Shown here in pieces: positions 2,623 through 33,846 of a DNA stretch of 35,307 nucleotides (positions are counted from its first letter, which is position 1; each line of letters opens with the position of its first letter). The notes below the pieces were generated by a model, which worked only from the letters and a program-made list of their open reading frames with translations, did not search any database and was not told the DNA's origin. The stretch is from the NCBI GenBank assembly GCA_012522635.1, contig JAAYKA010000050.1, positions 1 to 35,307 of the forward strand. The letters are read 5' to 3'. The position numbers were made by a program, and so were the translations under genes. This DNA is from Candidatus Cloacimonadota bacterium (GTDB lineage Bacteria; Cloacimonadota; Cloacimonadia; Cloacimonadales; Cloacimonadaceae).

Positions 2623-5600
2623 ATGAAAATTGCTGACCTTTCAATCAGATACTCCGTTTTGATTAACATGCTGGTGATTGCCATTGTGATTATGGGCGTG
2701 ATTTCCATGGTTCGCATGCCCCGGGAAGAGTTTCCCGCTGTGGAATTTGGCCGCGTCATCGTTGTGGTGGTCTATCCCGGCGCTTCGCCTCAGGAGATGG
2801 AAGAACTTGTTACAAACAAGGTGGAAACAGGCCTCAACAATCTTCCCAAGCTGGACAGCATCGAAAGCATAACCGAAGAAAGCAGCTCCACGGTTATCGT
2901 TTCCTTCGAAACAGGTGTGGATTCTGAAGAAGCCTACGACCTGGTGACCCGCGAAATGAGCAAGATAAACGATTTGCCCAGCGAAGCGATGGACCCCGTC
3001 ATCATCAGGCTCAGCATGCGCGAACTCAACCCCATCTCCCAACTCGTTGTGAGTGGGGATTTTACACCTCTCGCTCTGCGTGAGCTGGCAAATGAGCTGC
3101 GCGATGGTATCTTGAAATTGCCGGATATTTCCAAAGCAGAATTGATTGGCGCCCGTGACCACCAAATCTGGGTGGATGTGGACCAAGCCAGGATAGATGC
3201 ATACGGGTTAAGTCTTTCCGATGTTTCCGCCGTTTTGCAGGGACGCAATCTGAACATTCCCGGCGGCACCGCAAAATATGGCAACACCGAATTTTTGGTG
3301 CGCGCTTTGGGGCAATTCAACTCCATGGACGAGATTGGCAGGATGATTTTAACTTCCGACGCATCAGGGCGTTCCATCGTTGTCAACGACATTGCCACCG
3401 TGCGCGATACCCTTTCAAAATCCCAAACCATTGCCAAGCTTAACGGCCAGGAAGGCATCAGCGTTTTCTTATATAAAAAAGGCGATAGCAACATCATCAA
3501 AGTGATGGAACGGGTTCGGGAATACATCACAGAATTTGAAGCATCCCATCCCGGAGCCAAAATTAGCGTGCGCAATGACGGCTCCATCGACGTCAAAAAT
3601 GGCATCGGCGCTCTCAGCAACAGCGCTCTGATGGGCATCCTGCTGGTTTTTGGCGCCTTGCTGCTCTTTTTGGGCTGGCGCAATGCCGCATTTGCCTCAA
3701 CCGGCATCCCTCTTTCCCTGCTGATTACTTTCATAATAGTGCCGCTTTTTGGCGTAACCCTCAATAATTTCACCATCTTCGCTCTCATCATCGTGGTGGG
3801 CATGGTGGTGGATAATTCCATCGTGGTGTTGGAAAACATCCAACGGCACAAGGAAATGGGCTTGGATCATCGCGCTTCCATCGTGTCCGGAGTAGACCAA
3901 ATCATCTCCCCCGTTTTTGCATCCACTTTGACCACAGTGGCGGCTTTTATGCCCATGCTGCTCACAGGCGGCATCATGGGTCAATTTCTATCGGTTTTTC
4001 CCATCGTGGTCAGCGTCGCGCTGTTGGCTTCGTGGTTCCAATCCATGGTGATTTTGCCCACAAACGTATATCAGTTCGGACGCGGCATTTCTGGAGGTGA
4101 AGACCGTACCACCCGCATGATTCGGCCTATTAACAGATTTTATCGCAAGGTGATAACCCGTGCCCTGAAACACCGCGGCTGGGTTTTGGGCGGAACGCTT
4201 TTACTTCTTTTTATTTCTATTCTGGTGTTGTTCAGTGGCGCCATCCGGTTCGAGTTTTTCCCCGGCTCGCTCTCTCAAACCATTAGCCTGGAATTATATA
4301 CGCCGCTGGGCACATCGCTGGAAGAAACAAACCGCGTGGTGAGCCTCGTGGAACAAAAGATTCTTTCGCTGAAACACAAGGATGATATCGAATTCGTGGT
4401 CTCAAACGTTGGTTCCCTCAGCAGCCAGGGCATACGGGAAAACAAAACCTCCAACGCGGGCCTCAGAATCGATCTTGTCCCGCTTAAAAAGATGAAATCC
4501 ACCCACGAAGAAATCAAAAATGAAATCCGCGAATATCTGGACACGCTCCCCGGGCTATACAATTATAAATTCAGCACTTCCCAAGCCGGTCCGCCCTTGG
4601 GCAAGGATGTGGATATCCGCATTAAAGGCAAAGACTTGGAGCGCCTGGTCTATATCAGTGATGTGGTGAAATCCAGCCTGAAAAAGATACCCGGTGTCAA
4701 AGATATTGACGACAGCAACGACCCCGGCAAGATGGAAGCCCGCATCGTGATGAACCAGGAAAGGCTCTCCATGTATGGGCTCAGCGTTGCCCAGGTTGCC
4801 TCTGCCATCCGCTTGGCAAGCGCGGGCAGTGAAGTAACCCGTTTTCGCGGAAACGGCGTGGACGAAATTCCCATTGTGGTGAAATTGGACGACCGCTATA
4901 CCCAGGATTTTGAAACCCTGAAAGACCTCAAAGTGAGAAGCCGCACAGGAATGCTGGTTCCCATCCGCGAACTGGCGGATTTTGACATCGGCAGCAGCAT
5001 CTCCCGCATTACTCACGACAATGGAGACCGCGTTCTTTCCGTAACCGCTTCCGTGGGCGAGTATTACGAAGGCAAAACCCGCAAAAAACGCAGCACTCAG
5101 GAAGTGGTGAATATCCTGAGCGGAAGCAAACTCCGCTCCACACAGGGCACGCTGGCAAACTTTGAACAGCGCTTCCCAGGCTACACCATGGAATTCGGCG
5201 GTGTTCAAAAACATCAAAACGAATCCTACAGCTCTCTGGGAATCGGTTTCCTGATTGCTTTACTGGCGATTTTCACCATCCTTGCCTCACAGTTCCGCAG
5301 CTATGTGCAGCCGCTGATCGTGATGGCAACCATCCCGCTTGCTTTCATCGGCGTGGTGATTGGGCTACTAATCACCCGGCTTTCCTTTTCGCTGAACACT
5401 ATGCTTTCACTGGTGGCACTGGCTGGTGTGGTGGTAAACAATGCCATTCTGCTGATTGATTTTATCAACCAGGAAAGAGAGCAGGGCGCCGATCGCTGGC
5501 ACGCAATCATCAACAGCGGTTCAGCCAGGCTGCGTCCCATCATTTTGACCACCGCCACCACCGTGGCTGGAATGCTGCCCCTGGTTTTTTCCACCGATCC

Positions 5601-5778
5601 TTCCTCTCAGGTGTGGCGTCCTCTGGCTGTGACTTTTGCCTTTGGGCTCAGCTTTGCCACTCTCATCACATTGTTCGTGATACCAGTTCTTTACAGCGCA
5701 GTGGATTCCTTTTTCGGCCTCCTGAAAATGACTCGCTTCAAGGAACACACAAAGTTCGAAGATGCCGGTGTGGAATAA
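2623..5778 (+). CDS. RND-family efflux permease (AcrB/HAE1-like)
   Basis: This is a 1051-aa inner-membrane RND permease driven by ion motive force. The AcrB architecture is visible: a first membrane helix at the N-terminus (IRYSVLINMLVIAIVIMGVISMV), a large periplasmic porter domain, a helix block around residues 335-480, a second porter domain, and a terminal helix block around 865-1035. TM4 carries GMVVDNSIVVLEN, so the first AcrB relay Asp is kept (D397) but the second is Asn (N398). TM10 carries VVNNAILLIDF, with Asn939 where AcrB has Lys940. These changes occur in other divergent HAE-type pumps. AGGA lies 7 bases before the ATG. It is the third gene of the operon. Substrates are unknown; drugs, bile-like compounds or lipids are all possible. 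Confidence 0.94.
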   Translation: MKIADLSIRYSVLINMLVIAIVIMGVISMVRMPREEFPAVEFGRVIVVVVYPGASPQEMEELVTNKVETGLNNLPKLDSIESITEESSSTVIVSFETGVDSEEAYDLVTREMSKINDLPSEAMDPVIIRLSMRELNPISQLVVSGDFTPLALRELANELRDGILKLPDISKAELIGARDHQIWVDVDQARIDAYGLSLSDVSAVLQGRNLNIPGGTAKYGNTEFLVRALGQFNSMDEIGRMILTSDASGRSIVVNDIATVRDTLSKSQTIAKLNGQEGISVFLYKKGDSNIIKVMERVREYITEFEASHPGAKISVRNDGSIDVKNGIGALSNSALMGILLVFGALLLFLGWRNAAFASTGIPLSLLITFIIVPLFGVTLNNFTIFALIIVVGMVVDNSIVVLENIQRHKEMGLDHRASIVSGVDQIISPVFASTLTTVAAFMPMLLTGGIMGQFLSVFPIVVSVALLASWFQSMVILPTNVYQFGRGISGGEDRTTRMIRPINRFYRKVITRALKHRGWVLGGTLLLLFISILVLFSGAIRFEFFPGSLSQTISLELYTPLGTSLEETNRVVSLVEQKILSLKHKDDIEFVVSNVGSLSSQGIRENKTSNAGLRIDLVPLKKMKSTHEEIKNEIREYLDTLPGLYNYKFSTSQAGPPLGKDVDIRIKGKDLERLVYISDVVKSSLKKIPGVKDIDDSNDPGKMEARIVMNQERLSMYGLSVAQVASAIRLASAGSEVTRFRGNGVDEIPIVVKLDDRYTQDFETLKDLKVRSRTGMLVPIRELADFDIGSSISRITHDNGDRVLSVTASVGEYYEGKTRKKRSTQEVVNILSGSKLRSTQGTLANFEQRFPGYTMEFGGVQKHQNESYSSLGIGFLIALLAIFTILASQFRSYVQPLIVMATIPLAFIGVVIGLLITRLSFSLNTMLSLVALAGVVVNNAILLIDFINQEREQGADRWHAIINSGSARLRPIILTTATTVAGMLPLVFSTDPSSQVWRPLAVTFAFGLSFATLITLFVIPVLYSAVDSFFGLLKMTRFKEHTKFEDAGVE

Positions 5779-5828
5779 TTCCTGGATGTCTTTTTGATTT
5801 TCCAAACATAGAGTTACCTCGCATCAAT

Positions 5829-6142
5829 ATATGAACGAGCCTCTTGATTTCAGGCGCCCAGTGCCCTAAACCTTTGTATCGCCAATGTTTGGCTTTTGAA
5901 ACATAAGGGAGACATAAGGCGGCAAGCAGGAAGCACCAGGTTTCCCCAACATAGACGGCCTTCTAAAGCCTGCCCTCAAGCCTGTTCCGCTCTTGCTTCT
6001 GGCTCAGCAGTAACTGCATTTCATCCCCTGAGCATCCCATTTTTTTGGCGGGATGATAATGAGGCATGAATGTGGCACACATGGGCCAGGGTCAAGGGCG
6101 GATTAAGGTTGCATCCTACTTCACGATACAGGTGAACATATC
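5829..6142 (+). repeat. Dispersed intergenic element, copy A (314 bp)
   Basis: This matches the reverse complement of 16715-17028 over its full length without gaps. I count about 34 mismatches, or about 89% identity. Similarity stops abruptly at both ends. Both ends carry short related termini (ATATG at the left end, GATATG on the opposite strand at the right end). It lies between the convergent efflux permease and DUF4249 genes and covers the last 27 bases of the DUF4249 reading frame, including its stop. Inside, ACATAAGG occurs twice at 11-bp spacing (5901-5908 and 5912-5919). No transposase is encoded. It fills nearly all of the 337-base gap between the genes; the remaining 5779-5828 shows nothing. 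Confidence 0.9.
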
Positions 6143-7042
6143 TATGGAACTGGCGGAACCGAAATAGCCCAGGGCGTTGTTCACACCGCCGTGTAAATAG
6201 CCTTCCTCCATGAAGTTATAGTTGTAATAATTTTCGTCCACGATTCTGAGACGGAGACGATAGCGGCCATAGAAAAAGAAGGCAACGGAATAGTTGTTTA
6301 AAACAATGTAGTTGTCGGGCAGGTCGGGCAACGGGGCGGAGTTGAATCGATACATCATGTTGATGCGGCGTGGGGGGCGTCCGGCATTGTAGGCAGCTTC
6401 AATTTCGGCTGAGGGTTGCGTATCTTCCAAAAGTGGTGAGGTATATTCCAGCTCGGTGCTAAAATCTTCCAAACAGTATGTTTCCACCGCCATATACATG
6501 GTGCCGGAATGGATGCCGGTATTGACAATGGCGGGAAAATCGCTGTCGATGCGGCTTAATTGAATCTCGTTTTGGGTGTTGGCGTCCAAGGACCAGCCGA
6601 TTCCGGGCGGATTTGTGTTCCAGGGATTTGGTTCGGCATGGATGCAGGGTGGGACTGTGGTTTCTGCGCTGATGAGTTTATCGAAGCCGGGGATTCTGAC
6701 TTCGATGCGATAGCGGTGTTCAGGCTGGATGATGTTTTCCGCCGTGTCGATATATTTGAATTTAAAATCGTGAAGAGCGGGGCTGAGTTCAAATTCGAGC
6801 CCGGTATCCAAGTCCCGGACAGTGATTTCGGCGTCCCAAACGAAAAGCTCCAAAGGATTAAAGTTTTCGATGGTGGAACTGCGGGTCACATAGACCGGGT
6901 ATTCCAGACCAATGGGTTTGCCTGCCACGAGCAAGCCGGCAAGAGTGTGGACTTCGCCTTCAAAGCGCGGTCCGCTGGTATTTTGGCAGGCCGTGAGGGC
7001 AAAAAGCAACAGGAAAAGCGCGAAGGAAAGCTTTTTCACCAT
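6116..7042 (-). CDS. DUF4249-like lipoprotein, partner of the TonB receptor
   Basis: A 308-aa lipoprotein with signal peptide and lipobox LTAC (Cys19), so it is membrane-anchored on the periplasmic side or at the surface. The beta-rich body with LVAGKPIGLEYPVYVTRS near the N-terminus, the pattern EITVRDLDTG around residue 76 and the closing YFGSASSIDMF resemble DUF4249 proteins, which commonly sit beside TonB-dependent receptors with a CarboxypepD_reg-like domain. The assignment comes from pattern and context. Its ATG overlaps the stop of the receptor gene by 7 bases, so the two are coupled. The last codons and the TAG stop lie inside intergenic element copy A. The inverted copy has CAG at the matching codon, so one C-to-T change makes this stop. 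Function is unknown; a role in nutrient uptake is likely. Confidence 0.75.
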   Translation of the reverse strand: MVKKLSFALFLLLFALTACQNTSGPRFEGEVHTLAGLLVAGKPIGLEYPVYVTRSSTIENFNPLELFVWDAEITVRDLDTGLEFELSPALHDFKFKYIDTAENIIQPEHRYRIEVRIPGFDKLISAETTVPPCIHAEPNPWNTNPPGIGWSLDANTQNEIQLSRIDSDFPAIVNTGIHSGTMYMAVETYCLEDFSTELEYTSPLLEDTQPSAEIEAAYNAGRPPRRINMMYRFNSAPLPDLPDNYIVLNNYSVAFFFYGRYRLRLRIVDENYYNYNFMEEGYLHGGVNNALGYFGSASSIDMFTCIVK

Positions 7043-9363
7043 GTGATGTTCACTCCCAGAAAAGGCAGGATGGGAAACTGGTTGCCATCCTGAGCTTGCA
7101 GACTTAAGGTCATATCTTCTTGAGCTTCAAGGCTGTAGCTGCGGAAGCTGACGTTTTTGCGGTTAAAGATGTTAATCACGTCAAAATAGGGTTCAATGGT
7201 TCCCCAGCGATTGTGCCACTGCAGTTTGGCGCTCATATCCAGACGTAAATAGTTGGGCAGGCGTTGACCATCTTTATAGCTATAGATGATGCTGAAGTTT
7301 TCGCCATCGAAATAGATTCTTTCCGGAATTTCCACAGGCTGACCGGAATTGAAGCTTAAATTCAGCCCCAGTTTGAAATCCGCCCCAAAAGGTTGCCAGC
7401 CGGTGTTTTCGCTGATGTTATAGTTTTCCACCACGGTGAGGCTGTGGCTGCGGTCGAAACGGGGGAAAAAAGGAAGCGGTTCCCCGGTGAGGGGATCAAG
7501 ATTCATGCCATCGATTTTGCGGCGGGCGCGGCTGAAGGTGTAGCCCGCGAAGCCTTCCAGGCCGTTCCAATCGTTGCGCAGAAGCACTTCGAAGCCCAGG
7601 GCATGTCCGGTTCCGGAACGCATGGCGTCAGAAAGGGTGCCGGTTTCGTTGTTCCAGTTGAAAAACGTGTTATAGTCGAGCTGGAGCAAGTTTTTATAGT
7701 CCTTGTAATAGACTTCGGTTTCCAGGGCGAGATGCCTGCCCAAACGTCTGTTGTAGCCAATAATATAATGTAGCGCCTTGGCTGGGGGCATGGTTCCTTC
7801 CACTGGAATCCAAACGTCGAAGGGCGTGCTTATATCCATGGACAGCAATGCCAAATATTGGTTAAAGGTGCCAAAATTCAGGTAGATGGCTTCGCCGGCG
7901 TCCAGAGTCCATTTGAAGGAAAGCCGCGGCTCCAGATTGAAGTAGGAAGCGGCGGGAACCTGGGGCGGATGGATTTTCAGGGTTTGATACCAGTTTGCCC
8001 TCAAGCCTGGTTGCAGAGTCCACAAGGGGTTTATCACCCAGCTATCCTGCAGGAAAACCGAGGAGGTGAGCGAAGAGATTTTGGCGTCTGGAAGTCCGCT
8101 GGGGTCAACCTGATAGGAGGTTTCCACTTTCAGGGAAGTATCGTTGTATTTCAGTTCGAAACCGCCTTCCAGTTCGTGGCTATTGTTGGGTTTAAAATTG
8201 AATATGCCGCGGGTGGTGAGGTCTTTGATGAAGTTGTCGCTGCCAAAGATGGTTTCTTCGCCATCCGCGGAAATCTGGCCCATGCTGCTGTTGAACTGGC
8301 TTCCTGCCACCACAAAGTTTGAATAGAGCCGGGGTGAAAACAGGTGCATCCAGCGGGCGGAGACAGTTTTGTTTCCCCAATCGACATCCAGGACGCTGCC
8401 CAAATCGTAGATCATGTCGTCACGTCCCAGATAGGCGCTGAAGCTGAGCTTGTTTGCGGGGTTGATATCCCAATTCACTTTCGCGTGGCCATCGTAGAAA
8501 TAATAATTTGGCAATGCATCGTAAATGGCTTTGAGCAATTCCAGATAGGTGCGGCGGAAGGATGCCATGTAGGAGCCGCTTTGGCTGCCAAGTTTCCAGG
8601 GTCCTTCCAGGGTGGCGGAACTGGAAATCAGGCTTAGGCGTCCCACGCCGTGGTGTTCAACCCTGTTTCCCTGGCGGTTTGTGACGTCCAGAACCGAGGA
8701 AAGCCGTCCGCCATATTTTGCGGGATAGCCGCCTTTAATCAGTTCCACGTTTTCCACGGCGTCGGTGTTGAAAGTGCTGAAAAGCCCGCCCAGATGGCTG
8801 GGGTTGTAAACATCGATATCGTCAAGCAGGATGAGGTTTTCATCTGGTGAACCGCCCCGGATGTAGAGCCCGGAAAAGAAATCCGAAATGGGCATCACGC
8901 CCGGGAGGGTGAGCACGGCTCGGAAAACGTCCGCTTCCGCGGTGGAGACAACGTTTTGGATTTCCTCCCTGCCACGGTTGATGGAGCTGGCCCTAATCAC
9001 GGGACCATCCATGCCTTTTTCGCTTTCCGCGGTCACCACAATTTTGCCCAGTTCCACAGAGCTTTTTGTGAGCTGGACGTTCAGGGTTATCTCATCCGAA
9101 AGCGCGCGGACGGTGATGTTTTGGCTTTCGCGTTGATGGGAGACAAGGGAAAAATTCAGTTGAAAAGTGCCGGTTTGGTTCAGCGAGATGACATAGTAAC
9201 CCTGTTTATTTGTTTGAGTGCCAATCTTTGTGCCGCTTACGGAAACGTTCACAAATTGGATGGGTTCGCCGCTGTCGGCACGGGTCACAAAACCGCTCAC
9301 GGTGGCGGCATACAGGTTTGTAAGCAGCAGGATGAGCAGGGTGAAAGTCAGGCGTTTTTGCAC
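7036..9363 (-). CDS. TonB-dependent outer membrane receptor with CarboxypepD_reg-like domain
   Basis: A 775-aa outer-membrane receptor that should import a substrate using TonB energy. It has a signal peptide (residues 1-20), a CarboxypepD_reg-like domain (about 20-100: SGFVTRADSGEPIQFVNVSV, then GYYVISL), a plug (about 105-230, with LPGVMPISDFFSGLYIRGGS, ILLDDIDVYNPSHLGGLFS and VELIKGGYPAKYGGRLSSVLD) and a C-terminal 22-strand-type barrel ending in Trp775, as usual for outer-membrane barrels. The start is GTG: AGGAGA lies 5 bases before it and the signal peptide begins there. It overlaps the DUF4249 gene downstream. The substrate is unknown. Confidence 0.9.
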   Translation of the reverse strand: MQKRLTFTLLILLLTNLYAATVSGFVTRADSGEPIQFVNVSVSGTKIGTQTNKQGYYVISLNQTGTFQLNFSLVSHQRESQNITVRALSDEITLNVQLTKSSVELGKIVVTAESEKGMDGPVIRASSINRGREEIQNVVSTAEADVFRAVLTLPGVMPISDFFSGLYIRGGSPDENLILLDDIDVYNPSHLGGLFSTFNTDAVENVELIKGGYPAKYGGRLSSVLDVTNRQGNRVEHHGVGRLSLISSSATLEGPWKLGSQSGSYMASFRRTYLELLKAIYDALPNYYFYDGHAKVNWDINPANKLSFSAYLGRDDMIYDLGSVLDVDWGNKTVSARWMHLFSPRLYSNFVVAGSQFNSSMGQISADGEETIFGSDNFIKDLTTRGIFNFKPNNSHELEGGFELKYNDTSLKVETSYQVDPSGLPDAKISSLTSSVFLQDSWVINPLWTLQPGLRANWYQTLKIHPPQVPAASYFNLEPRLSFKWTLDAGEAIYLNFGTFNQYLALLSMDISTPFDVWIPVEGTMPPAKALHYIIGYNRRLGRHLALETEVYYKDYKNLLQLDYNTFFNWNNETGTLSDAMRSGTGHALGFEVLLRNDWNGLEGFAGYTFSRARRKIDGMNLDPLTGEPLPFFPRFDRSHSLTVVENYNISENTGWQPFGADFKLGLNLSFNSGQPVEIPERIYFDGENFSIIYSYKDGQRLPNYLRLDMSAKLQWHNRWGTIEPYFDVINIFNRKNVSFRSYSLEAQEDMTLSLQAQDGNQFPILPFLGVNITW

Positions 9364-9417
9364 TCAATCTCCTATCGTGTTCTTTGAAGGTTCAATCATT
9401 TGGAGGGGGCATGGATT

Positions 9418-9423
9418 TGTCAA
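9418..9423 (-). promoter_or_regulatory. TTGACA, possible -35 element of the TonB receptor operon
   Basis: On the minus strand a perfect TTGACA lies 55 bases before the GTG at 9363. AATGAT follows after 17 bases and is a four-of-six match to TATAAT. It sits just past the terminator of the preceding gene, where a new promoter would be expected. Confidence 0.4.
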
Positions 9424-9440
9424 CCCCGATTTTTTCATAT

Positions 9441-9473
9441 TAAAAAAGAGGAGCGACCGGGTTGGCCGCTCCC
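9441..9473 (-). terminator. Rho-independent terminator after the secreted-protein gene
   Basis: On the minus strand a GGAGCG/CGCTCC stem (9450-9455 with 9467-9472) is followed by a run of six T at 9447-9442. It lies 35 bases after the stop of the 932-aa gene and separates it from the TonB receptor operon. Confidence 0.75.
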
Positions 9474-9507
9474 CGTATTGATTGGCTTTGAAGCCGTTGA
9501 TTTTTAG

Positions 9508-12306
9508 TTATTTGGCAAGCAGCATCTTGCGGGTGACAGTGTTGCCATCGCTGCTGAGGCGATAGAAATACAGTCCGCTGGAGACGCTTCTGCCTTCATT
9601 GTCACATCCGTTCCACACAACGCTGTGATTTCCGGAATCGCGCACATCGTCCACCAAGGTGCGGACAAGCTGGCCTTTGGTGTTGTAGATTTTCAGGCTG
9701 GCATTTCCGGCTTTGGGAATGCTGTAGGCGATGGTGGTTTCAGGGTTGAAGGGGTTGGGATAGTTCACGGCGTCGAGCACGTAAACGGGAGTCACGTTGT
9801 CGTCGTTGGCGGTTGAATATTCCACAATGGCGCGGAGCATGATTTCGCCGGTCGTGACAGGATCCCAGTCGGTGCCGATCTTCTTGAAGCTATAGCCATT
9901 TGAAGAGGTGTCCAATCCAATGGCGGAAGCGTTCGCGGTTTCGAGAATTGTCAGATAGAAGCTGCCGTCGGTTTCGGTTGGGGGAATTTGAATCCAGTTC
10001 CAGCCTTCCACAACGGAGGAGGCGGGGAACTGATATTGAGCCAATTGCGTGCCAGGCATGCCATCGGCGCCGTCGTCGTCATTCACACGAACGATGATTC
10101 CAGCTGAGCCGAGAGTGTGGACAAAGACTTTGGCATACTTCACTGTTGCAGCGCGGTCATAATTGTGTTTCACAGCCATCTGCTTGGTGGAGCCAACGTT
10201 GATGCCTTCTTCGGCAGTTCCATCGTCATGATAGAGCTCAGCGTGCATTTCGGGCAACACGAAAGCGCTCACCGCGTTGGAGGCGGTGGATTCATTCGCG
10301 CCATACATGGCGGTGACATAATAGGTGTGCAAGCCACCTTCCACGTTCATGTCGGTGTAGGTGAGAACGGTTCCGCCAACTTCGTCGATTTCGATGTTGT
10401 TGCGATAGATTTTGAATCCGGAGGCTCTGTTTCTGTTTTCATTGTGGCTCAAAACCAAGGGGTCGTTGCAAATCGGATTGTCTTCATATTCCACGGGGCC
10501 ATAGCCAAGGACATATTCTTTGCCATCGGCGTCTGCCACGTAAATGCGGACGTTCCAGTTGTAGGTGAGAGAAGAGCTTACGTTTGCCAGGGTGGTCCAG
10601 CTTCCCTGCCAATACATCATGTTTCCATATCCGGGAACGTGTGGACCGTCATCACAGCCAGCGGGATGTCCGGTCTGGGTGTTGACGTTGTAGCCAGCCA
10701 TAATCTGGGTTTGGCTGGGAATGGTCCAGGGTGTGGTGAGGGTGATTTCGTTCCACTGGTTGATGGCGGGGTTTGGCACAGCCTGTTCGTAGGCGATTGC
10801 GCCAGCGGCGCCAGTCCAGATGCGGAGGGTGTAGTTGCAGTTTACTTCCGCAGGATAGAATTTGATTTTGGTGATGTTCATGCCAACGTAGTCGTTGATG
10901 CCATATTCACCAATCGGATCCCATTTCGCTGCCACTGCGAATTCAACCGCGCCGCTTGTGCCGATGGCGTTACCGGAGTTTTCGACGTCGTAGTGCAGCC
11001 AGCCTTCTTCGCCACCGCCACCACCGGAACCGGGCTGTTCCCAATTCAGGGTGACGTCGTTGCCTTCAACAGAGGCTGCCAGGTTGTCTGGAGGAGCGAT
11101 GAAGATATCGTTGTAGATGGTCACGTCGTCAATCATGATGCCAGTGCCGATGGGCGCGTTGTCGTTGGATTGGAAATACCAACGGAACTGCACTGTGTAG
11201 CCGGCATAGTCGGAGATGAGGCCATCGAGGGAATAGGCGCCCACCATGGACATCCAGGTGTCCGGAGCGTCGGAATAGACATAGTTTGTGCCAGTGGCAC
11301 TGCCATAGGGGTTGCTCATCGCGTTCCAGGAAACACCGCCATCAGCGGAGATTTCCCAGCCCCAATAGTCGATGTTCGGGAAGGTGCCCGGGTCGTCAAA
11401 TTCACCACGAATCATGAAGTCGGCACGGATGTCGCCTTCGGTGGGAAGTTCGATGGGAGGGCTCACCAGGTAGTTATACATATTGATGTTGTAGGTTCCC
11501 TGAGCATTTTGACAATTCATCACGTGGGTGGGGGAAGGAGCAGCGGCATGGGTATCCAGATGCCAAATATCTCCACCAACGGGGACCATGCTGGCCCAGG
11601 TCATTTGGCCATCATCCACACCACTGTTGGTGTAGCCGCCAAAAGAAATGTCGTCCACCATCGCGCCAAAAAGGTGCGGGGCGTTGGCAGTGCAATACGC
11701 CGGGTCAGAAGCGAAGGCGAAGCGGATTTTCACGCTTTGGCCAACGAAAGCAGAAAGGTCTGCGGTGACCGTTTCCCAAGGACCGTGGATGCCACCCCAG
11801 CCGGGGATGCCTTCGCCTTCACCGTGTTCGGAACCGAAGGCGTAGGAGTTTGTAAAGTCGTAGGCGGGGGTTACGGTTGTGAGCACGCTCCAGGTGGCAC
11901 CGTTATTTGTGGAAATGCGGAGATTGAATGAATCCCAGCCATCCCACTGGTCGCTGACGCCTGGATCTTCAACAGCGAGGGCCATTTTGAAAGTGAGGGT
12001 GGCGTTGGCCGCAGTGATGTTGCGAGCCGGAGTGTCCAGAACCAGGTATTGGTGGTTGTCATAACCGCCAATGTTGCTGCCTTGAGCAAGATCGGGGTCA
12101 CCCATCCACCAGACGTTGCCCTGGGCACCGCCATAGTTGTAAATGTGCCAGTTGTTTGGCGGGACGCTTCCATCGAAGTGAGTCCAGCCATCGGCACCGT
12201 TTTCAAAGGTTTCCTGCCATGCGATTACCTCATAACGGCCTGCGCCGGCGGCAAACACGGCTGTGACCAAGGTAAGGGCCAGAATTAACAGCCAGTTCTT
12301 TTTCAT
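9508..12306 (-). CDS. Large secreted protein with type IX-like C-terminal sorting domain
   Basis: A 932-aa exported protein with signal peptide ([20 protein letters not shown]). An N-terminal jelly-roll-like region (about 28-225: [15 protein letters not shown] ... VDDISFGGY) and a second similar region (about 235-405, ending [12 protein letters not shown]) resemble the MAM/immune-inhibitor-A-like modules of FCB surface proteins. A fibronectin type III-like segment starts at [21 protein letters not shown], includes a Gly-rich linker, and continues near 630-690. The last 86 residues are a por-secretion/T9SS type A domain with [30 protein letters not shown] and [11 protein letters not shown]. 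No catalytic motif was seen, so a structural or adhesive role is possible. AAGGAGG lies 4-5 bases before the ATG, a strong site suggesting high expression. It has its own terminator. Confidence 0.88.
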
Positions 12307-12370
12307 TGATCCTCCTTATGAATCAAGAGAGTTAATACTTTTTTTCCTTCATGACTATGTATGTCTTTTT

Positions 12371-12376
12371 TGTCAA
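12371..12376 (-). promoter_or_regulatory. TTGACA, possible -35 element of the secreted-protein gene
   Basis: On the minus strand a perfect TTGACA followed by A-rich sequence lies 64 bases before the ATG at 12306. No convincing -10 hexamer is seen at 16-18 bases. The gene needs its own promoter, because the ABC genes upstream end at 12473 and 166 bases separate the two. Confidence 0.35.
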
Positions 12377-12472
12377 TCTGTTTTTTCATCCAAGAAAGTT
12401 TGAAGCAATTTTCATTCCACGCCAACATTGAAAACAAGGCGGGTTAAATCATGCTGGACATAAAGTTAGCCA

Positions 12473-14635
12473 TCATGTATATTGAAGACGATAAAGATCG
12501 TAATAAAGGCCTTTATGGTCCAAAAGCTCGAAATGAGAGCCTTCTTCAACAATCTTGCCTTTGTGCAAAACGATGATTCTGTCCACATGCTGGATGGTGG
12601 AAAGCCTGTGGGCGATGATGATGGAACTGCGATTTTGGATGAGTTTCGCCAGGGCATCCTGAATCAGGAGTTCCGTTTCTGTGTCGATGTTTGAGGTGGC
12701 TTCATCCAGGATAAAAATGGATGGGTCATAAGCCAAAACCCGGGCGAAAGCAATGAGCTGTCTCTGACCGGTGGAAAGCGTGGCGCCGCGTTCCATAACA
12801 GGCTCGTCATAGCCTTGGGGCAGTTTACAGATGAATTTATCGGCGTTCACATACTTGGAAACCTGCACGATTTGCTTGCGGCTCATTTCGTGGTTGTTCA
12901 GGGCAATATTGTCGTGGATATTACCGCTGAAGATGAAAACGTCCTGCTGCACGATGCCCACGTTTTTGCGGATGTCTTCCAAAGCGTAGTCTGAAAGCGG
13001 CTTGTCATCCAAAAGGATTTCACCTTTTTGATAGGGATACATTCCCAGGATGAGGTTCACGATGGAGGTTTTGCCGCTGCCTGTGTGGCCAACCAGGGCA
13101 ATCTTTTCTCCGGGCTGAACCTTGAAGCTCACATCTTTGAGCACCCATTCGCCGGGATTGTAGGCCAGCCAAACATTTTTGAATTCAATCCCACCCTGCA
13201 GTTTCACGTCGCTGACCAATTCACCTCGATAGTCTTCAGGCTCGAGGTCCATCAGGTCGAAGATGCGTTCGGCTCCAGCCAGCGCACCTTGGAGGATGTT
13301 GAATTTTTCGCTGAAATCGTTGATGGGCTGGAACAGCTTGGAAATATACTGTGTGAAGGCCATTAAAAGCCCGATTGTAATCACATTTCGCAGGATTTGG
13401 CCGCCTCCATACCAGATGATAAGTGCCACGGCAAATTGTGAACTCACGTGGATGATCGGGCGGAAAAAGGCAAACAGTTTCATCTGCTTCAGCGAGGTGA
13501 GATAATATTCCTGGTTGATGCGCGAAAATTCATCCCGCTTGTGGAAATATTGGTTGAAAAGCTGGATGATTTTTTGGCCACCGATATGCTCTGCCAGGGT
13601 GGCGTTCAGCGCCGCAAGGTGTTTGCGCACTTCACGATAGAGAACCCTGGTGCGTTTGCGGAATTCCCGGATAACCCAGATTACCAACGGCAAAATGGCA
13701 AAACTAATCAACGCCAATTGCCAATCCAAAACCAACATCAAAACCACGATGGCAATAATCAGCACCACGTCTTGAAACAGTGTGATTACACCTGAGGAAA
13801 GCATTTCATCGATGGCGCGAATATCGTTTGTGACTCTGGTGACCAGCCTGCCCACGGGGTTTTTATCAAAATATTGCACCGGCATGCGCTGGAGATGGGC
13901 AAAGACGTCGTGGCGCATGTCGTTCATCGCTTTTTGGGAGAAAGTGGTGGTAATCACCATCTGGAAATAACCTGCCAAAAAACGCAGGATGCTGATGCTC
14001 AAAAACGCCAACGCCAGCCAAATGAGGCTGTGGGCTGCTTCCGCTCGGGTTTGGATGCGTTCGGTTGAGGGTATTTTGTCCAGTTCTTCCCTGGCCAGCG
14101 CGATTTGTTTATCCCCGACCCTGAACCAGCCGGTCAGCTTTTCCCCGCCTCCTTGTGGTTGCTTGTTTTCCTTGATATATTTGTTCAAGATGGTGATGTT
14201 CGAAGCTTTGTCTTTGATGAGGAAAACTTTTGAATCCGCGATTATTCCCTTTTGTCTCAGCTCCTGCAAATCCACACGGTTTATCTTGTTCATCTCTTTG
14301 CTGGGAATAACCACAAAAAACTTATCTTCGCTTGCCATCTTCTTCAGTTTCAAGAGCTTGTATTTATCCAAGAAAGCATCAACGCGCGCTTCATCGGTGA
14401 AGATGGCGATGGTTTTGTCCGAAACTATGTAGTCATCGATGGCACGTTGCTGGATGAGGGGCTGAACCAGTTCCGCTCCAGCCACCACCATCAGAATCAC
14501 AAAGGAGATGATTACCCATTTTAGGTAGGGCATCAGATAACGCAACATTTTGCCATAGAGGCGTTTATCGTAAATTCTGTTCTTCAGATCGTCTTCCGCG
14601 AAGCCGCCACCGCGCCCGTGTCCGCCGCCCATCAT
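12473..14635 (-). CDS. ABC exporter half-transporter, TM288-like (canonical ATP-site partner)
   Basis: A 720-aa membrane-NBD fusion. A Gly/His-rich N-terminus comes first, then TM1 (about 40-60) and a soluble insert of about 130 residues (about 70-198), then TM2 onwards (from about 203), and the NBD from about 484. The NBD has Walker A GHTGSGKT (516-523), a variant signature STGQRQ (621-626), Walker B FILDE with catalytic Glu645, and His676 in the switch loop. A variant signature with a canonical Glu matches TM288-type subunits of heterodimeric exporters. The gene overlaps its partner as ATGA, with AAGGAG 7 bases upstream. The insert makes it about 120-140 aa longer than usual family members and should lie outside the inner membrane. 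The substrate is unknown. Confidence 0.92.
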   Translation of the reverse strand: MMGGGHGRGGGFAEDDLKNRIYDKRLYGKMLRYLMPYLKWVIISFVILMVVAGAELVQPLIQQRAIDDYIVSDKTIAIFTDEARVDAFLDKYKLLKLKKMASEDKFFVVIPSKEMNKINRVDLQELRQKGIIADSKVFLIKDKASNITILNKYIKENKQPQGGGEKLTGWFRVGDKQIALAREELDKIPSTERIQTRAEAAHSLIWLALAFLSISILRFLAGYFQMVITTTFSQKAMNDMRHDVFAHLQRMPVQYFDKNPVGRLVTRVTNDIRAIDEMLSSGVITLFQDVVLIIAIVVLMLVLDWQLALISFAILPLVIWVIREFRKRTRVLYREVRKHLAALNATLAEHIGGQKIIQLFNQYFHKRDEFSRINQEYYLTSLKQMKLFAFFRPIIHVSSQFAVALIIWYGGGQILRNVITIGLLMAFTQYISKLFQPINDFSEKFNILQGALAGAERIFDLMDLEPEDYRGELVSDVKLQGGIEFKNVWLAYNPGEWVLKDVSFKVQPGEKIALVGHTGSGKTSIVNLILGMYPYQKGEILLDDKPLSDYALEDIRKNVGIVQQDVFIFSGNIHDNIALNNHEMSRKQIVQVSKYVNADKFICKLPQGYDEPVMERGATLSTGQRQLIAFARVLAYDPSIFILDEATSNIDTETELLIQDALAKLIQNRSSIIIAHRLSTIQHVDRIIVLHKGKIVEEGSHFELLDHKGLYYDLYRLQYT

Positions 14636-16383
14636 AACTCTTCTCCTTCCAGGCGGGCCCGGATGCGTTGTTTTTCATAGAGATCGTGATACAATCCACC
14701 CTGGGCAACCAGTTCGTTATGGGTTCCGCGTTCGGTTATTTTGCCATCGCCCAAAACGATGATGTGGTCAGCATGTTGGATGCTGGAAATGCGGTGGGCG
14801 ATGATGATGGTGGTTTTCCCCTTGCGTGTTTCAATCAGTTTTTGCAGGATAAAACGTTCAGTTTTGGTGTCCACTGCGGAAAGCGCGTCGTCCAAAATCA
14901 ATATCTGCGGGTCTGTGAGCAGGGCACGGGCAATCGCCAAACGCTGTTTTTGCCCACCGGAAAGGGTGACGCCGCGTTCGCCGATGACGGTATCGAATTT
15001 GTGGTCAAACTCCATCACTTCATCATAGATTTGGGCAAGCTTTGCCGCTTCATAAACTTTCTCATCACTGGTTTGCGGGCTGCCGAGGCGGATATTATCG
15101 GAAATGGAATCTGAAAACAGGAAAATATCCTGCGGCACCAGAACCACATCGCGCCTTAAAACATTCAGCGGAATACGATGCAGCGGGTGTCCATCAATGA
15201 GGATGCTGCCTTTGGGAGGATTGTAGATGCGGATTAAAAGCTCGATCAGTGTGGTTTTTCCGCAACCAGTGGGTCCAACCACCGCCATGGTTTTTCCTTC
15301 CTCCAGGGAAGTGCTCACATCGTCGAAAATGAGCGGCAGATTTTCACCATAACGGAAGCTGAGGTCGCGAATTTCAATCTCGCCCCGCAGCGTCTTGATG
15401 CTGTGATCTGCCTCGTCGTCATTGATTTCCGGCTGGGTTTCAAAAATCTCGTTCAAACGCTTCAGGGACGCGGTTCCGCGCTGATACATGTCCACAATCC
15501 AGCCGATGGCAATCATCGGCCAAACCAGCATGCCCAGATAGGAGAAAAATGCCACGAACTGTCCGATGCTGATATCACCGCGAATGGCGGCTCGTCCACC
15601 AAAAAATAGCGTGATAATCATGGAAAGGCTGATGATGAGGTTTTGGAAGGGGTGGAAAAACCCGGCGATTTTCGCCATGCGGATGTTTTCGCGCACATAG
15701 TCCCAGGAAACATCATCCACTTTTTCCAATTCCGGCTTTTCCTGGCCAAAGGCTTTCACGATGCGGATTCCGGAAATGCTTTCCTGGATGGTGCCCGTGA
15801 GAGTGGCAAAGCTTTTTTGCACCCGGAAAAAGCTCTTGTGCATTCTTTTCCCAAACACCGTGATGGTGATGGTTAAAATGGGCATTGGAATCACCGCCAA
15901 AGCTGTGAGGCGCCAGTCGATTGAACCCATGAAAGCAAAGGATGCCACCGACATCAGAATAATGTCCATGGCGGCAATCAGTCCCATGCCAAACAGCATT
16001 CGCACCGCGTTCAGGTCGTTTGTGGCATACGCCATCAAATCTCCTGTTTTGCTGCGGTTGAAAAAGTTTTGCGAGAGCCTCAGCAGGTGGTTGTAGAAAT
16101 CTTGGCGCAGATTTTTTTCAATCATATACGAATTTCCAATGATTAAAACGCGCCAAAAATATCGCAGAACCATCACCGCCACAGCCAATCCAACGATTAT
16201 CAGAGCAACCCAGATTAAACCGGTTTGGGTAACCGTGCGCTGTTGGATTCCGTCGATGGCCTTCTGCATGACACGTGGCGTGATGAGCTGGACCACGTCC
16301 ACCAAAATCAGCAACACTATCCCGCCCAGTATTTTGCCATAGCTCTTCTTCAAATATGGAAGGATGGCGTCAAATGTCCGCAT
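14632..16383 (-). CDS. ABC exporter half-transporter, TM287-like (degenerate ATP-site partner)
   Basis: A 583-aa membrane-NBD half exporter with six TM helices (about 15-330) and an NBD with Walker A GPTGCGKTT, signature LSGGQKQR and Walker B LILDD. The catalytic Glu is replaced by Asp. A canonical signature with Asp in Walker B is the hallmark of the degenerate-site subunit (TM287-like), which pairs with the overlapping downstream gene to give one hydrolytic and one degenerate site. I chose the ATG at 16383 because AGGGAG lies 5 bases before it and the protein then begins at the usual place before TM1. An upstream in-frame ATG at 16533 would add 50 residues unlike the family. It starts the operon. 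Confidence 0.92.
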   Translation of the reverse strand: MRTFDAILPYLKKSYGKILGGIVLLILVDVVQLITPRVMQKAIDGIQQRTVTQTGLIWVALIIVGLAVAVMVLRYFWRVLIIGNSYMIEKNLRQDFYNHLLRLSQNFFNRSKTGDLMAYATNDLNAVRMLFGMGLIAAMDIILMSVASFAFMGSIDWRLTALAVIPMPILTITITVFGKRMHKSFFRVQKSFATLTGTIQESISGIRIVKAFGQEKPELEKVDDVSWDYVRENIRMAKIAGFFHPFQNLIISLSMIITLFFGGRAAIRGDISIGQFVAFFSYLGMLVWPMIAIGWIVDMYQRGTASLKRLNEIFETQPEINDDEADHSIKTLRGEIEIRDLSFRYGENLPLIFDDVSTSLEEGKTMAVVGPTGCGKTTLIELLIRIYNPPKGSILIDGHPLHRIPLNVLRRDVVLVPQDIFLFSDSISDNIRLGSPQTSDEKVYEAAKLAQIYDEVMEFDHKFDTVIGERGVTLSGGQKQRLAIARALLTDPQILILDDALSAVDTKTERFILQKLIETRKGKTTIIIAHRISSIQHADHIIVLGDGKITERGTHNELVAQGGLYHDLYEKQRIRARLEGEEL

Positions 16384-16714
16384 TGAGACTCCCTTTGATA
16401 TTTTTGGATTTTTCACGGATAATGCTTTTTTGACAGGCACAGAAATGTTCCCGCCGGGATGCAAGCAAAACCCGCTCAATCTGCGCCAAACTCCACCAAA
16501 GGCAGATTTTGTCAAATGAAAAGTAGTTTTCATGGCTGCTAACAGACTTTTATCCGCGTTTTGACGTCTCGTAAACTGGAAAAATTACGGGGATGCAGAT
16601 TGGTAACGCCCTCAAATAAGGGAACTTAACAGCTAAATCTGGCTGGGGGATTTCCCCGATTCCATTTCGGGAACTGGATTATTTATCTTTCCGCTCTTTT
16701 ATCATTCAACCCTT
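16384..16714 (-). other. Non-coding leader/upstream region of the ABC exporter operon
   Basis: No supported gene lies between the ABC start and intergenic element copy B. On the minus strand a TTGACA followed by AAAT lies at 16510-16515, 127 bases before the start, without a clear -10 hexamer. A small G-rich/C-rich dyad lies near 16645-16656. The promoter of the exporter operon must lie here or in the repeat, but I cannot place it with confidence. Confidence 0.4.
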
Positions 16715-17028
16715 GATATGTTCACCCATATCGTGAAACAGGATGCACCCTTAATCCGCCCTTGGCTTTGGCTCATTTGTGCCTCGTTCATGCCTCATTA
16801 TCAACTCGCCAAAAAGATGGGATGCTCAGGGGATGAAATGCGGTTACTGTTGAGCCAGAAGCAAGAGCGGAGCAGGTTTGGGGGCAGGCTTTAGAAGTCC
16901 GTCTATATTGGGAAAACCTGGTGCTTCCTTCTTGCCGCCTTATGTCTCCCTTATGTTTCAAAGGCTAATCATTGGCGATACAAAGTGTTAGGGCACTGCG
17001 CGCCTAAAAACAACAGGCTCGCTCATAT
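16715..17028 (-). repeat. Dispersed intergenic element, copy B (314 bp, inverted)
   Basis: This is an inverted full-length copy of 5829-6142, about 89% identical and gap-free by hand alignment, with sharp loss of similarity at both ends. The tandem motif CCTTATGT (the reverse complement of ACATAAGG) lies at 16938-16945 and 16949-16956, again 11 bp apart. The ends read GATATG on both strands, a possible 6-bp terminal inverted repeat. I see no target-site duplication. It lies between the start of the ABC operon and the terminator of the GlmL operon. A 58-codon frame (16718-16894, plus) runs through it but is not kept in copy A. Confidence 0.9.
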
Positions 17029-17049
17029 CAGAAATTGTCATGAGTAAAG

Positions 17050-17098: not shown

Positions 17099-18229
17099 TC
17101 AGGTTTCAATCACTTCCACATTGGCACGGGGAAGCACCATCTTTGTTCCATCCTCAAACTGGGCTTCCAGGATGCGGACCAAGGTTTCGGATTCCACCTT
17201 GGTGAGTTCTTCAGGCAGGGCGGTCACTTTGGCGATGCGCCCAAAATTTGGTTGGCGAATCACACGAATCAAGGTTCCGATTTCCAGCGTGGGCATTGCC
17301 GCTTCATCCACCACCAGTTCTTTTTCATCGAACTTGAGCGGGATGATTATTTCTGGGCGAATGACGCCGGCGCGAATTTGGGTTTTGCCATGAATGGAAC
17401 ATTTGTGGCCATCGAATTGTTTGAGCAGGTCGAAGGTTTTGCGCGCCATATTGATTTTGCCAAAGCCTTCCGTCACCAGGATGGTGAGCCCAATGTTTTC
17501 ATGGCCGGTGATGGCAACGCCGATATCGTGACCCAGGATTTGTTTGATATCCTGGTCATCAATGCCCCCGGTGATGATGGCTTTAACGCCGTTGGCGCGG
17601 GCGGCTTCAATCACCTCAAGCGAGGCAAAGGCTCCGGTCACAATCACCTTTCCGGCACAGTTTTCCCCGATGTCGGAAGCGGAAATAACCGCTTCGGGCG
17701 CGGGAGCCAGGGTTTTGATTTCGCCAACGGTTTCGCCGCCGATGCCAAAGATGCCCTGGATGTAGGCGCTTTTATTTTCGATGACGACGCCCTCGTCTTC
17801 AATAACTTCGGTCACGATGCCATCGATGAAGGCTTTCACCTGGATGGGAACGCGGGGCTCGCGCAAAAGAACCTGTCCGGTGACGGCGGAGATGCTTTCC
17901 ACCTCGCCTTCAACGGGAGAGCGCACTTCATTTTTGAAAAGACCGGTTCCCAAAAAACCTTTGGTTTCAGCAAGGATGGTGGTTTTGTCAATCTGCTGTC
18001 CGGGCTCAATCTTGATGAAGTTTTCCAATTGGGCAGGGGTCACGCCCAGCTTGTTTGCCAGGTTGAAGGGCAAAACCTTGCCTGGAAGCAGGGTTTCCGC
18101 AACGACGTCCTCGGCTTTCACGTGGTCGCCTTTTTTGACCAAGACCTTGCCTTTGAGGGGGAGAATTCGCTCTTTTCTGAGGATGATGTTTTCGGTAACG
18201 GTTAATCCGGCTGAGTATGCTTGTGCCAT
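17099..18229 (-). CDS. Conserved protein with lipoyl-like segments, GlmL partner, function unknown
   Basis: A 376-aa soluble protein without signal peptide. Two glycine-bearing beta segments resemble halves of a barrel-sandwich hybrid (biotinyl/lipoyl-like) fold: GKVLVKKGDHVKAEDVVAE at about 27-45, and VRSPVEGEVESISAVTGQVL with IDGIVTEVIEDEGVVI at about 102-150. There is no conserved Lys for lipoylation. A central alpha/beta part follows (about 193-300: GKVIVTGAFASLEVIEAARANGVKAIITGG). The C-terminal 60 residues look like a small KOW/SH3-type barrel (GTLIRVIRQPNFGRIAKV). Strong SD AGGAGG lies 5 bases before the ATG, 9 bases after the GlmL stop, so both are co-expressed. Context suggests a role with the GlmL ATPase, perhaps in enzyme reactivation. 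I do not recognise the family by name. Confidence 0.85.
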   Translation of the reverse strand: MAQAYSAGLTVTENIILRKERILPLKGKVLVKKGDHVKAEDVVAETLLPGKVLPFNLANKLGVTPAQLENFIKIEPGQQIDKTTILAETKGFLGTGLFKNEVRSPVEGEVESISAVTGQVLLREPRVPIQVKAFIDGIVTEVIEDEGVVIENKSAYIQGIFGIGGETVGEIKTLAPAPEAVISASDIGENCAGKVIVTGAFASLEVIEAARANGVKAIITGGIDDQDIKQILGHDIGVAITGHENIGLTILVTEGFGKINMARKTFDLLKQFDGHKCSIHGKTQIRAGVIRPEIIIPLKFDEKELVVDEAAMPTLEIGTLIRVIRQPNFGRIAKVTALPEELTKVESETLVRILEAQFEDGTKMVLPRANVEVIET

Positions 18230-30594: not shown

Positions 30595-30748
30595 TTTTTC
30601 ACCGTCCAAAATCTTTCTTTCAAACCAGTAAAAACAAACCCCTCTTTTTGACAAGGCTTTTTTTGCAACAGCTCATAATTTCTTGCTCTCGGCTTGTTCA
30701 AATAAATGGTTTATTGATGTTGCTTATTGGATTCCACCCCGCTTCACT

Positions 30749-30853
30749 CTTGATTCCAGCCCAAGCGTTGTTCGTCTTCCCCTTTGCGGATGCCCGTTGC
30801 CGAATCGGGAGGGTGGGGAAGAACCATCAACTGGATCTGCGGCTGGAATCAAG
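30749..30853. repeat. Structured non-coding stretch with 13-bp perfect inverted arms
   Basis: CTTGATTCCAGCC at 30749-30761 is the exact inverse of 30841-30853. A nested pair CTTCCCC/GGGGAAG (30776-30782 with 30815-30821) and a small CCCG/CGGG pair (30793-30796 with 30806-30809) lie inside, so a branched or long hairpin of about 105 nt can form on either strand. No T-tract follows directly. It lies in the 327-base gap between rpmB and the histidine kinase gene, which shows no supported gene. It could be a transcript structure, a small RNA or a decayed element. Confidence 0.6.
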
Positions 30854-30921
30854 ATGGAAGCAGATGGGAGATGGGTTTTCAGCTTTTTTGAGCCAAAAAG
30901 GGCATAAAATTACAGTAAACA

Positions 30922-33706: not shown

Positions 33707-33730
33707 GCGGAACTTGCGATATTCAGACTT

Positions 33731-33846
33731 TATCTGAACGAGTTTGCTGAACAAACATCAGCAAAAGCCCTAACTCTTTGTGTGGCTTATAATTGTCTTT
33801 ACAAACATAAGGGACACATAAGGCGGCAAGGCAGGAAGAACCAAAT
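33731..33846 (+). repeat. Dispersed intergenic element, copy C (truncated, diverged)
   Basis: This matches the left third of copy A: CTGAACGAG at the start, AGCCCTAACTCTTTGT, then AAACATAAGGGACACATAAG and on through CGGCAAGGCAGGAAG. It keeps the two ACATAAGG motifs at 11-bp spacing (33805-33812 and 33816-33823). The remaining two thirds of the element are missing. It sits between the ferritin promoter and the 3' end of fpg, in the same orientation as copy A. Confidence 0.8.

What the first reader, a model, noticed from the sequence alone, without database searches (positions are those of the whole stretch)
5829..17028. Two 314-bp inverted copies of an unknown element flank a 10.6-kb gene block
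Positions 5829-6142 and the reverse complement of 16715-17028 align without gaps over 314 bp, at about 89% identity counted by hand, and similarity stops sharply on both sides. The block between them holds only minus-strand genes: TonB receptor, DUF4249 lipoprotein, T9SS-type secreted protein and ABC exporter. Inverted copies of this length could recombine and invert the block, or the pair could mark two ends of a mobile segment. No transposase is present. It may be a MITE-like or REP-like family of this lineage.
Basis: partly seen in the sequence, partly recalled or inferred. Interest (0 to 1): 0.8.

Follow-up and report, generated by a model that had tools for sequence, protein, structure and literature searches.

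The report
Gene-block inversion scarred by inverted repeats
A 10.6-kb block of genes in a Cloacimonadota bacterium is flipped compared with its relatives, and the two matching 319-bp sequences at its ends are mirror-image copies of one original junction, most likely left by that rearrangement; no sign of an active on/off switch was found.

Summary
In detail: 5829-6147 and the reverse complement of 16710-17028 match without gaps (283/319, 89%), and similarity ends sharply. The 'unknown element' is composite: (A) a ~110-nt dispersed repeat with 78 model hits in this genome, 4 in the nearest relative and none in 11 other congeners; (B) a ~115-nt imperfect palindrome found across the genus; and (tail) the 3' end of the DUF4249 gene. 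The block between the copies is inverted relative to relatives. G001 and G003 keep RND-ABC1-ABC2-secreted-TonB-DUF4249 in one direction, facing gene m, each on one contig; the window has the same flanks with the block flipped, breakpoints at the two copies. In G001 the DUF4249|m junction holds a B element and the orthologous DUF4249 3' end; the RND|ABC1 junction has neither. So the pair derives from one ancestral junction, duplicated in inverted orientation at or before the inversion. [quoted passage not shown] Nothing suggests an active switch: the arms have diverged 11%, the operon's conserved upstream region flips with it, and no serine recombinase was found in the genome. A and B appear undescribed; A shows no target-site duplications, covariation or transposase.

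The parts
5829..6147 (+). copy 1 of the 319-nt breakpoint duplication (RND side; its tail is continuous with the intact DUF4249 gene)
   Evidence: tail orthologous to the G001 DUF4249 3' end
16710..17028 (-). copy 2 of the duplication (m side; its tail is a detached remnant of the DUF4249 3' end whose stop codon TAG reads CAG)
6148..16709 (.). inverted block: DUF4249, TonB, secreted protein, ABC2, ABC1 genes; opposite orientation in relatives
5826..5936 (+). repeat A copy inside copy 1
   Evidence: model R1, E 4.8e-27
16921..17031 (-). repeat A copy inside copy 2
   Evidence: model R1, E 3.1e-25
33729..33841 (+). third repeat A copy of the window, outside the inversion; absent from the orthologous G001 gap
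5988..6100 (.). palindromic element B inside copy 1
16757..16869 (.). palindromic element B inside copy 2
6101..6147 (-). native 3' end of the DUF4249 gene (...DMFTCIVK, stop) and the few bases after it; source of the copy 2 tail
   Evidence: aligns with the G001 DUF4249 3' end, shuffles never as good
16710..16756 (+). duplicated, non-functional DUF4249 3'-end remnant next to ABC1
2623..5778 (+). RND transporter gene, left flank of the inversion; next to ABC1 in relatives
17099..18229 (-). gene m (376 aa, no Pfam match), right flank of the inversion; faces DUF4249 in relatives
16450..16620 (-). region upstream of and into the start of ABC1, conserved with G001 (contains ACTTTTCATTTGACAAAATCTGCC); lies inside the block and flips with the operon
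   Evidence: score 115, best of 300 shuffles 38

Best explanation
The pair is the scar of a lineage-specific inversion of the ABC1-to-DUF4249 block. In the ancestor, repeat A and element B lay between the convergent genes DUF4249 and m. During the inversion a 319-nt stretch of that junction, from the left end of A through B into the last codons of DUF4249, was copied, so that one copy stayed with DUF4249 (now next to RND) and one stayed with m (now next to ABC1), in inverted orientation. This is the geometry of 'DNA duplication associated with inversion': staggered breaks with fill-in, or replicative strand transfer. Shown: the inversion, its polarity, the single ancestral location of B and the tail, the two new and two native junctions, and the absence of repeat A from these junctions in G001. 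Inferred: that duplication and inversion were one event, that A lay at the DUF4249|m junction beforehand, that the left end of A was a break site, and that the state is fixed rather than switching.
For: G001 and G003 carry RND-ABC1-ABC2-SEC-TonB-DUF4249 in one orientation, facing m-MutL, each on one contig. G001's record (L183, JAAYEF010000014.1) is the window with the block flipped. DUF4249 also faces m in G004, G009, G010 and G012, and RND is in line with ABC1 in G010 and G012. In G001 the m|DUF4249 junction contains B (C9:31376-31488) and the DUF4249 3' end orthologous to the tail; the m flank of copy 2 and the DUF4249 flank of copy 1 both align with it (scores 59 and 93, never reached in 300 shuffles). 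B is not found at the G001 RND|ABC1 junction. The copy 2 tail is a DUF4249 remnant with its stop codon lost. Copies differ at 11.3% of sites against 32% at four-fold sites between G000 and G001, so the duplication is younger than the split.
Against: A two-step history (copying first, homologous inversion later) leaves the same end product and is not excluded. The intergenic DNA right at the two new junctions cannot be aligned with the G001 RND|ABC1 gap (p about 0.27-0.29), so the empty target site is not resolved to the base. Synteny breaks are not significantly more frequent at A-containing gaps (7/37) than at A-free gaps of 100 nt or more (2/27, Fisher p = 0.28), so repeat A is not shown to cause rearrangements. 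The assembly is a metagenome bin.
Confidence: 0.65

Rival explanations
1. Two steps: the A-led segment was first copied into the RND|ABC1 gap in inverted orientation, and later RecA-type homologous recombination between the two then identical 319-nt copies inverted the block.
For: Another pair of A-led segments (C3/C99, 85% over 248 nt, starting exactly at the left end of A) was copied between two places whose flanks are each in ancestral order in G001, so copying without rearrangement happens in this genome. It gives the same flanks as observed.
Against: Needs two events where one suffices; no genome with the intermediate state was found.
Confidence: 0.27
2. Active invertible switch: the arms still recombine and both orientations coexist.
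For: Inverted arms of 319 nt flanking an operon; the longest identical run is 32 nt.
Against: Arms diverged 11% with no sign of homogenisation; the conserved region upstream of ABC1 lies inside the block, so flipping would not separate the operon from it; no serine recombinase (PF00239: 0 hits) and only two tyrosine recombinases, on other contigs; six related species show the DUF4249-m arrangement of the other orientation.
Confidence: 0.04
3. Assembly artefact: the contig was joined wrongly through the repeat.
For: It is a metagenome bin, and contigs often end in these repeats; the window's own contig starts inside a B copy.
Against: The copies share no identical run over 32 nt, and the copy 2 tail has diverged as an unconstrained remnant, which a join error would not produce.
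Confidence: 0.03
4. The pair marks the two ends of a mobile (transposon-like) segment that moved into this place.
For: Inverted copies flank a gene block.
Against: The same genes occupy the same place between RND and m in relatives, only reversed; no transposase in the block.
Confidence: 0.01

Closest known systems
[quoted passage not shown] 2011, as cited in PMC4671568 and PMC8963470) and Thermus tengchongensis (PMC8963470)
   Same: A segment of one breakpoint is present in inverted orientation at both ends of an inverted block; the other ancestral junction lacks it; a gene-end remnant is created.
   Different: Short block and short duplication in an uncultured phylum; one edge of the duplicated segment is the left end of a genome-specific dispersed repeat. 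The 2011 paper itself was not read here; its definition is from the citing papers and memory.
Staggered-break inversions with inverted duplications at breakpoints (Drosophila, for example PMC3355041; only the search listing was seen)
   Same: Inverted duplication of breakpoint sequence as a by-product of inversion.
   Different: Eukaryotic; repair route in this bacterium unknown.
MITE, REP/REPIN and ERIC-type intergenic repeats
   Same: A and B are short, non-coding, intergenic and dispersed; B is an imperfect palindrome of about the length of ERIC (127 bp, from memory).
   Different: A has no detectable target-site duplication, no matching ends seen and no RAYT in the genome; B was not aligned with any named family, and the window has no Rfam hit.

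Membership tests
[quoted passage not shown]
   G001 and G003 on single contigs; partial contigs of G004, G009, G010, G012 agree
[quoted passage not shown]
[quoted passage not shown] the other lacked it | tested here: met
   B and the DUF4249 3' end at G001 m|DUF4249, absent at RND|ABC1; part A is absent from G001 at both, so its ancestral place is inferred
[quoted passage not shown]
   no intermediate genome available
MITE (repeat A) | Target-site duplication | tested here: not met
   no excess of left-flank words downstream of 61 copies against shuffled partners; right end not well defined, so the test is limited
MITE (repeat A) | Terminal inverted repeats matching a transposase-bearing element | tested here: inconclusive
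   no terminal inverted repeat seen by eye; only PF01797 and PF01609 were searched as transposase families, both with 0 hits
REP/REPIN with RAYT | RAYT (Y1 transposase) in the genome | tested here: not met
   PF01797: 0 hits in own genome, bin 96% complete
ERIC-like palindrome (element B) | About 115-127 bp imperfect palindrome, dispersed | tested here: met
   27 copies align over 115 columns with one gap; dyad pairs 63% of cells against 37-44% when slid; 118 strand hits in own genome, mostly + and - at the same places
ERIC-like palindrome (element B) | Homology to enterobacterial ERIC | not tested
   no alignment with ERIC was made; resemblance in length and symmetry only
Invertible switch (invertase-type) | Linked site-specific recombinase | tested here: not met
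   no serine recombinase in genome; two tyrosine recombinases, on other contigs
Invertible switch (invertase-type) | Both orientations present in the population | not testable with these tools
   no reads available

The most novel reading that the evidence does not exclude
Repeat A is a non-autonomous mobile element of a new type with one sharply defined end (C-rich, then eight A/T bases, then GAACGAGTC) and a variable other end. It copies itself together with differing downstream sequence, without target-site duplication, and can cause duplicative inversions such as this one.
Probability: 0.13. Interest if true: 0.7.

Novelty: new member of a known kind. Interest (0 to 1): 0.42.

Why it matters
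It turns a hand-spotted inverted repeat into a polarised inversion with a breakpoint scar in an uncultured phylum, and shows how such a scar can look like a mobile or switching element. It also brings to light two apparently undescribed intergenic repeat families, one of which (A, about 75 copies) expanded in a single species among those compared. If A proves mobile, the mechanism would be of general interest.

Tried and rejected
Consensus RNA structure for A: RNAalifold found no base pair. B as a structured RNA: dyad clear, but covariation only slightly above shuffles. Rfam: no hit in the window. RAYT/Y1 transposase, serine recombinase and DDE_Tnp_1 in own genome: none. Exact core of A in genome contigs and viral contigs: none (near records may be left out by the tool). 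Target-site duplications of A: no excess. Strand bias of A against GC skew: none (34/72, p = 0.72); against neighbouring genes: none (38/66, p = 0.27). A as a rearrangement hot spot: not significant. A by-eye alignment of the RND|A and tail|ABC1 junction flanks with the G001 gap, which suggested an ATAT target, was dropped because shuffled sequences score as well (my note that called it clean is withdrawn). Shared B positions between G000 and G001: 2 of 9 B-bearing gaps against 2 of 44 others, not significant.

Full report
OBSERVATION. The inverted pair is real: 5829-6147 against the reverse complement of 16710-17028, 319 nt without gaps, 283 identical. The adjoining 40 nt on either side match at 7/40, so the ends are sharp. 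The block between holds only minus-strand genes: DUF4249 lipoprotein, TonB receptor, a secreted protein with a T9SS-type tail, and two ABC exporters.

WHAT THE 319 nt ARE. A search of the window's own genome (G000, 1.84 Mb, 152 contigs) gave 41 matches; apart from the pair itself, 37 lie within the first ~130 nt of the unit and 2 in its later part. The first part, repeat A, reads: eight A/T bases, GAACGAGTCTGTTG, about 19 variable bases, then GCCCTAAACCTTTGTGTCGCTTATGTTTGGCTTTTGAAACATAAGGGAGACATAAGGCGGCAAGCAAGAA. A sequence model (R1) finds 78 matches in G000, 4 in G001 and none in 11 other genomes of the genus. The 72 copies fetched lie between genes in all orientations (of 58 with both neighbours called: convergent 17, tandem 17 and 12, divergent 12; one further copy overlaps a crudely called ORF). 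In 19 gaps with syntenic flanks in G001, repeat A is absent from G001 every time. Left of the GAACGAG box there is an A/T stretch preceded by C, and no signal beyond about -13.

The next part, element B (5988-6100; 16757-16869), is a ~115-nt imperfect palindrome; 27 copies align with one gap over 115 columns. Position i tends to pair with 116-i (63% of cells, 37-44% when slid), but covariation beyond column composition is slight. Model R2 gives 118 strand hits in G000, 66 in G001 and 3-18 in seven other congeners.

The last part (about 6101-6147) is the 3' end of the DUF4249 gene and the few bases after it; the protein ends ...SSIDMFTCIVK, stop at 6116. It aligns with the DUF4249 3' end of G001. 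In copy 2 the same stretch stands alone next to ABC1, and its stop codon TAG reads CAG.

THE INVERSION. A chimeric protein query (RND, DUF4249, TonB, ABC1, m) located the genes in 30 relatives, and regions were fetched and annotated by tblastn. G001 (C9) and G003 (C3) have, on single contigs, RND-ABC1-ABC2-SEC-TonB-DUF4249 in one direction facing m-MutL. The convergent DUF4249-m arrangement is also seen in G004, G009, G010 and G012, and RND in line with ABC1 in G010 and G012. G001 corresponds to record JAAYEF010000014.1 (Candidatus Cloacimonadota bacterium AS06rmzACSIP_72), where the order continues into MutL, n1 and n2 exactly as in the window. The window has the same flanks but the block between the two copies reversed. 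The window's arrangement is therefore derived, and both breakpoints fall at the 319-nt copies.

WHERE THE COPIES CAME FROM. In G001 the m|DUF4249 junction contains a B element (C9:31376-31488) and the orthologous DUF4249 3' end. The window's m flank up to copy 2 and the DUF4249 flank of copy 1 both align with that junction (scores 59 and 93 against shuffled maxima of 24 and 32). The G001 RND|ABC1 junction, about 90 nt, has no B or A. So B and the tail had one ancestral location, between DUF4249 and m. In the window, copy 1 keeps its native link to DUF4249 and copy 2 its native link to m; the joints RND|copy 1 and copy 2|ABC1 are new. A itself is not at either junction in G001, so its place before the event is inferred. 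The exact target at RND|ABC1 is not resolved: flank alignments there are no better than shuffles.

AGE AND ACTIVITY. The copies differ at 11.3% of sites; four-fold degenerate sites between G000 and G001 differ at 32%. If the copies evolve neutrally, the event is younger than the species split, at roughly 0.3 of its age. The copies have not been homogenised. The conserved region upstream of ABC1 is inside the block, so flipping would not disconnect the operon from it. The genome shows no serine recombinase and only two tyrosine recombinases on other contigs. I judge this a fixed, probably near-neutral rearrangement; only reads could prove it.

MECHANISM. The end product equals what has been called DNA duplication associated with inversion in Helicobacter and Thermus (PMC8963470, PMC4671568, citing Furuta et al. 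2011). It may arise by staggered breaks with fill-in or by replicative strand transfer (established knowledge, not tested here). A two-step route, copying first and homologous inversion later, gives the same product. It cannot be dismissed, because another A-led pair, C3/C99, shares 248 nt at 85% from the left end of A onward, while both places are collinear with G001. A third pair, C134/C87, includes the end of the upstream gene. That two of three extended pairs begin exactly at the left end of A hints that this end is a break or transfer point. But a direct test found no significant excess of synteny breaks at A-containing gaps (7/37 against 2/27 and 2/16).

COMPARISON AND NOVELTY. The rearrangement is a new example of a known kind. 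A and B look like undescribed intergenic repeat families; the paper searches made found nothing on them, but they were few. A fails the tests tried for MITE and REP/RAYT membership. B resembles ERIC in length and symmetry only.

LIMITS. The genome is a metagenome bin; one genome per species was available; no reads. Gene calls in the context tests are simple open reading frames, and about 1.46 Mb of G001 was used.

Noticed in passing
window 5988-6100, 16757-16869, 30744-30857, and 2-69 at the contig start: Element B, a ~115-nt imperfect palindrome of almost constant length found across the genus, much diverged in sequence; the window's contig begins inside a copy.
   Followed up: partly
G000 contigs C3:14281 (L121) and C99:6072 (L130): A second A-led pair, 85% over 248 nt, starting exactly at the left end of A; both sites are collinear with G001, so the segment was copied without rearrangement.
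   Followed up: partly
G000 contigs C134:5523 (L113) and C87:8076 (L118): A third extended pair (355 nt, 85%) that includes the end of a T9SS-type gene, its terminator, A and B; the piece between A and B differs.
   Followed up: partly
about 21 of the 72 fetched A copies, for example C89, C9, C30, C106: A and B lie within 200 nt of each other, on either side and at varying distance; this may only reflect permissive long intergenic gaps.
   Followed up: partly
L181, L178, L175 (G001 intergenic gaps): G001 gaps hold another repeat with the motif CTTAATCAAGC...TTATGGCTTGAT, not present at the orthologous G000 sites shown.
   Followed up: no
L158 (G006:C54): In G006 RND is followed directly by TonB and DUF4249, with no ABC1, ABC2 or SEC match in between, so this locus is rearranged there too.
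   Followed up: no
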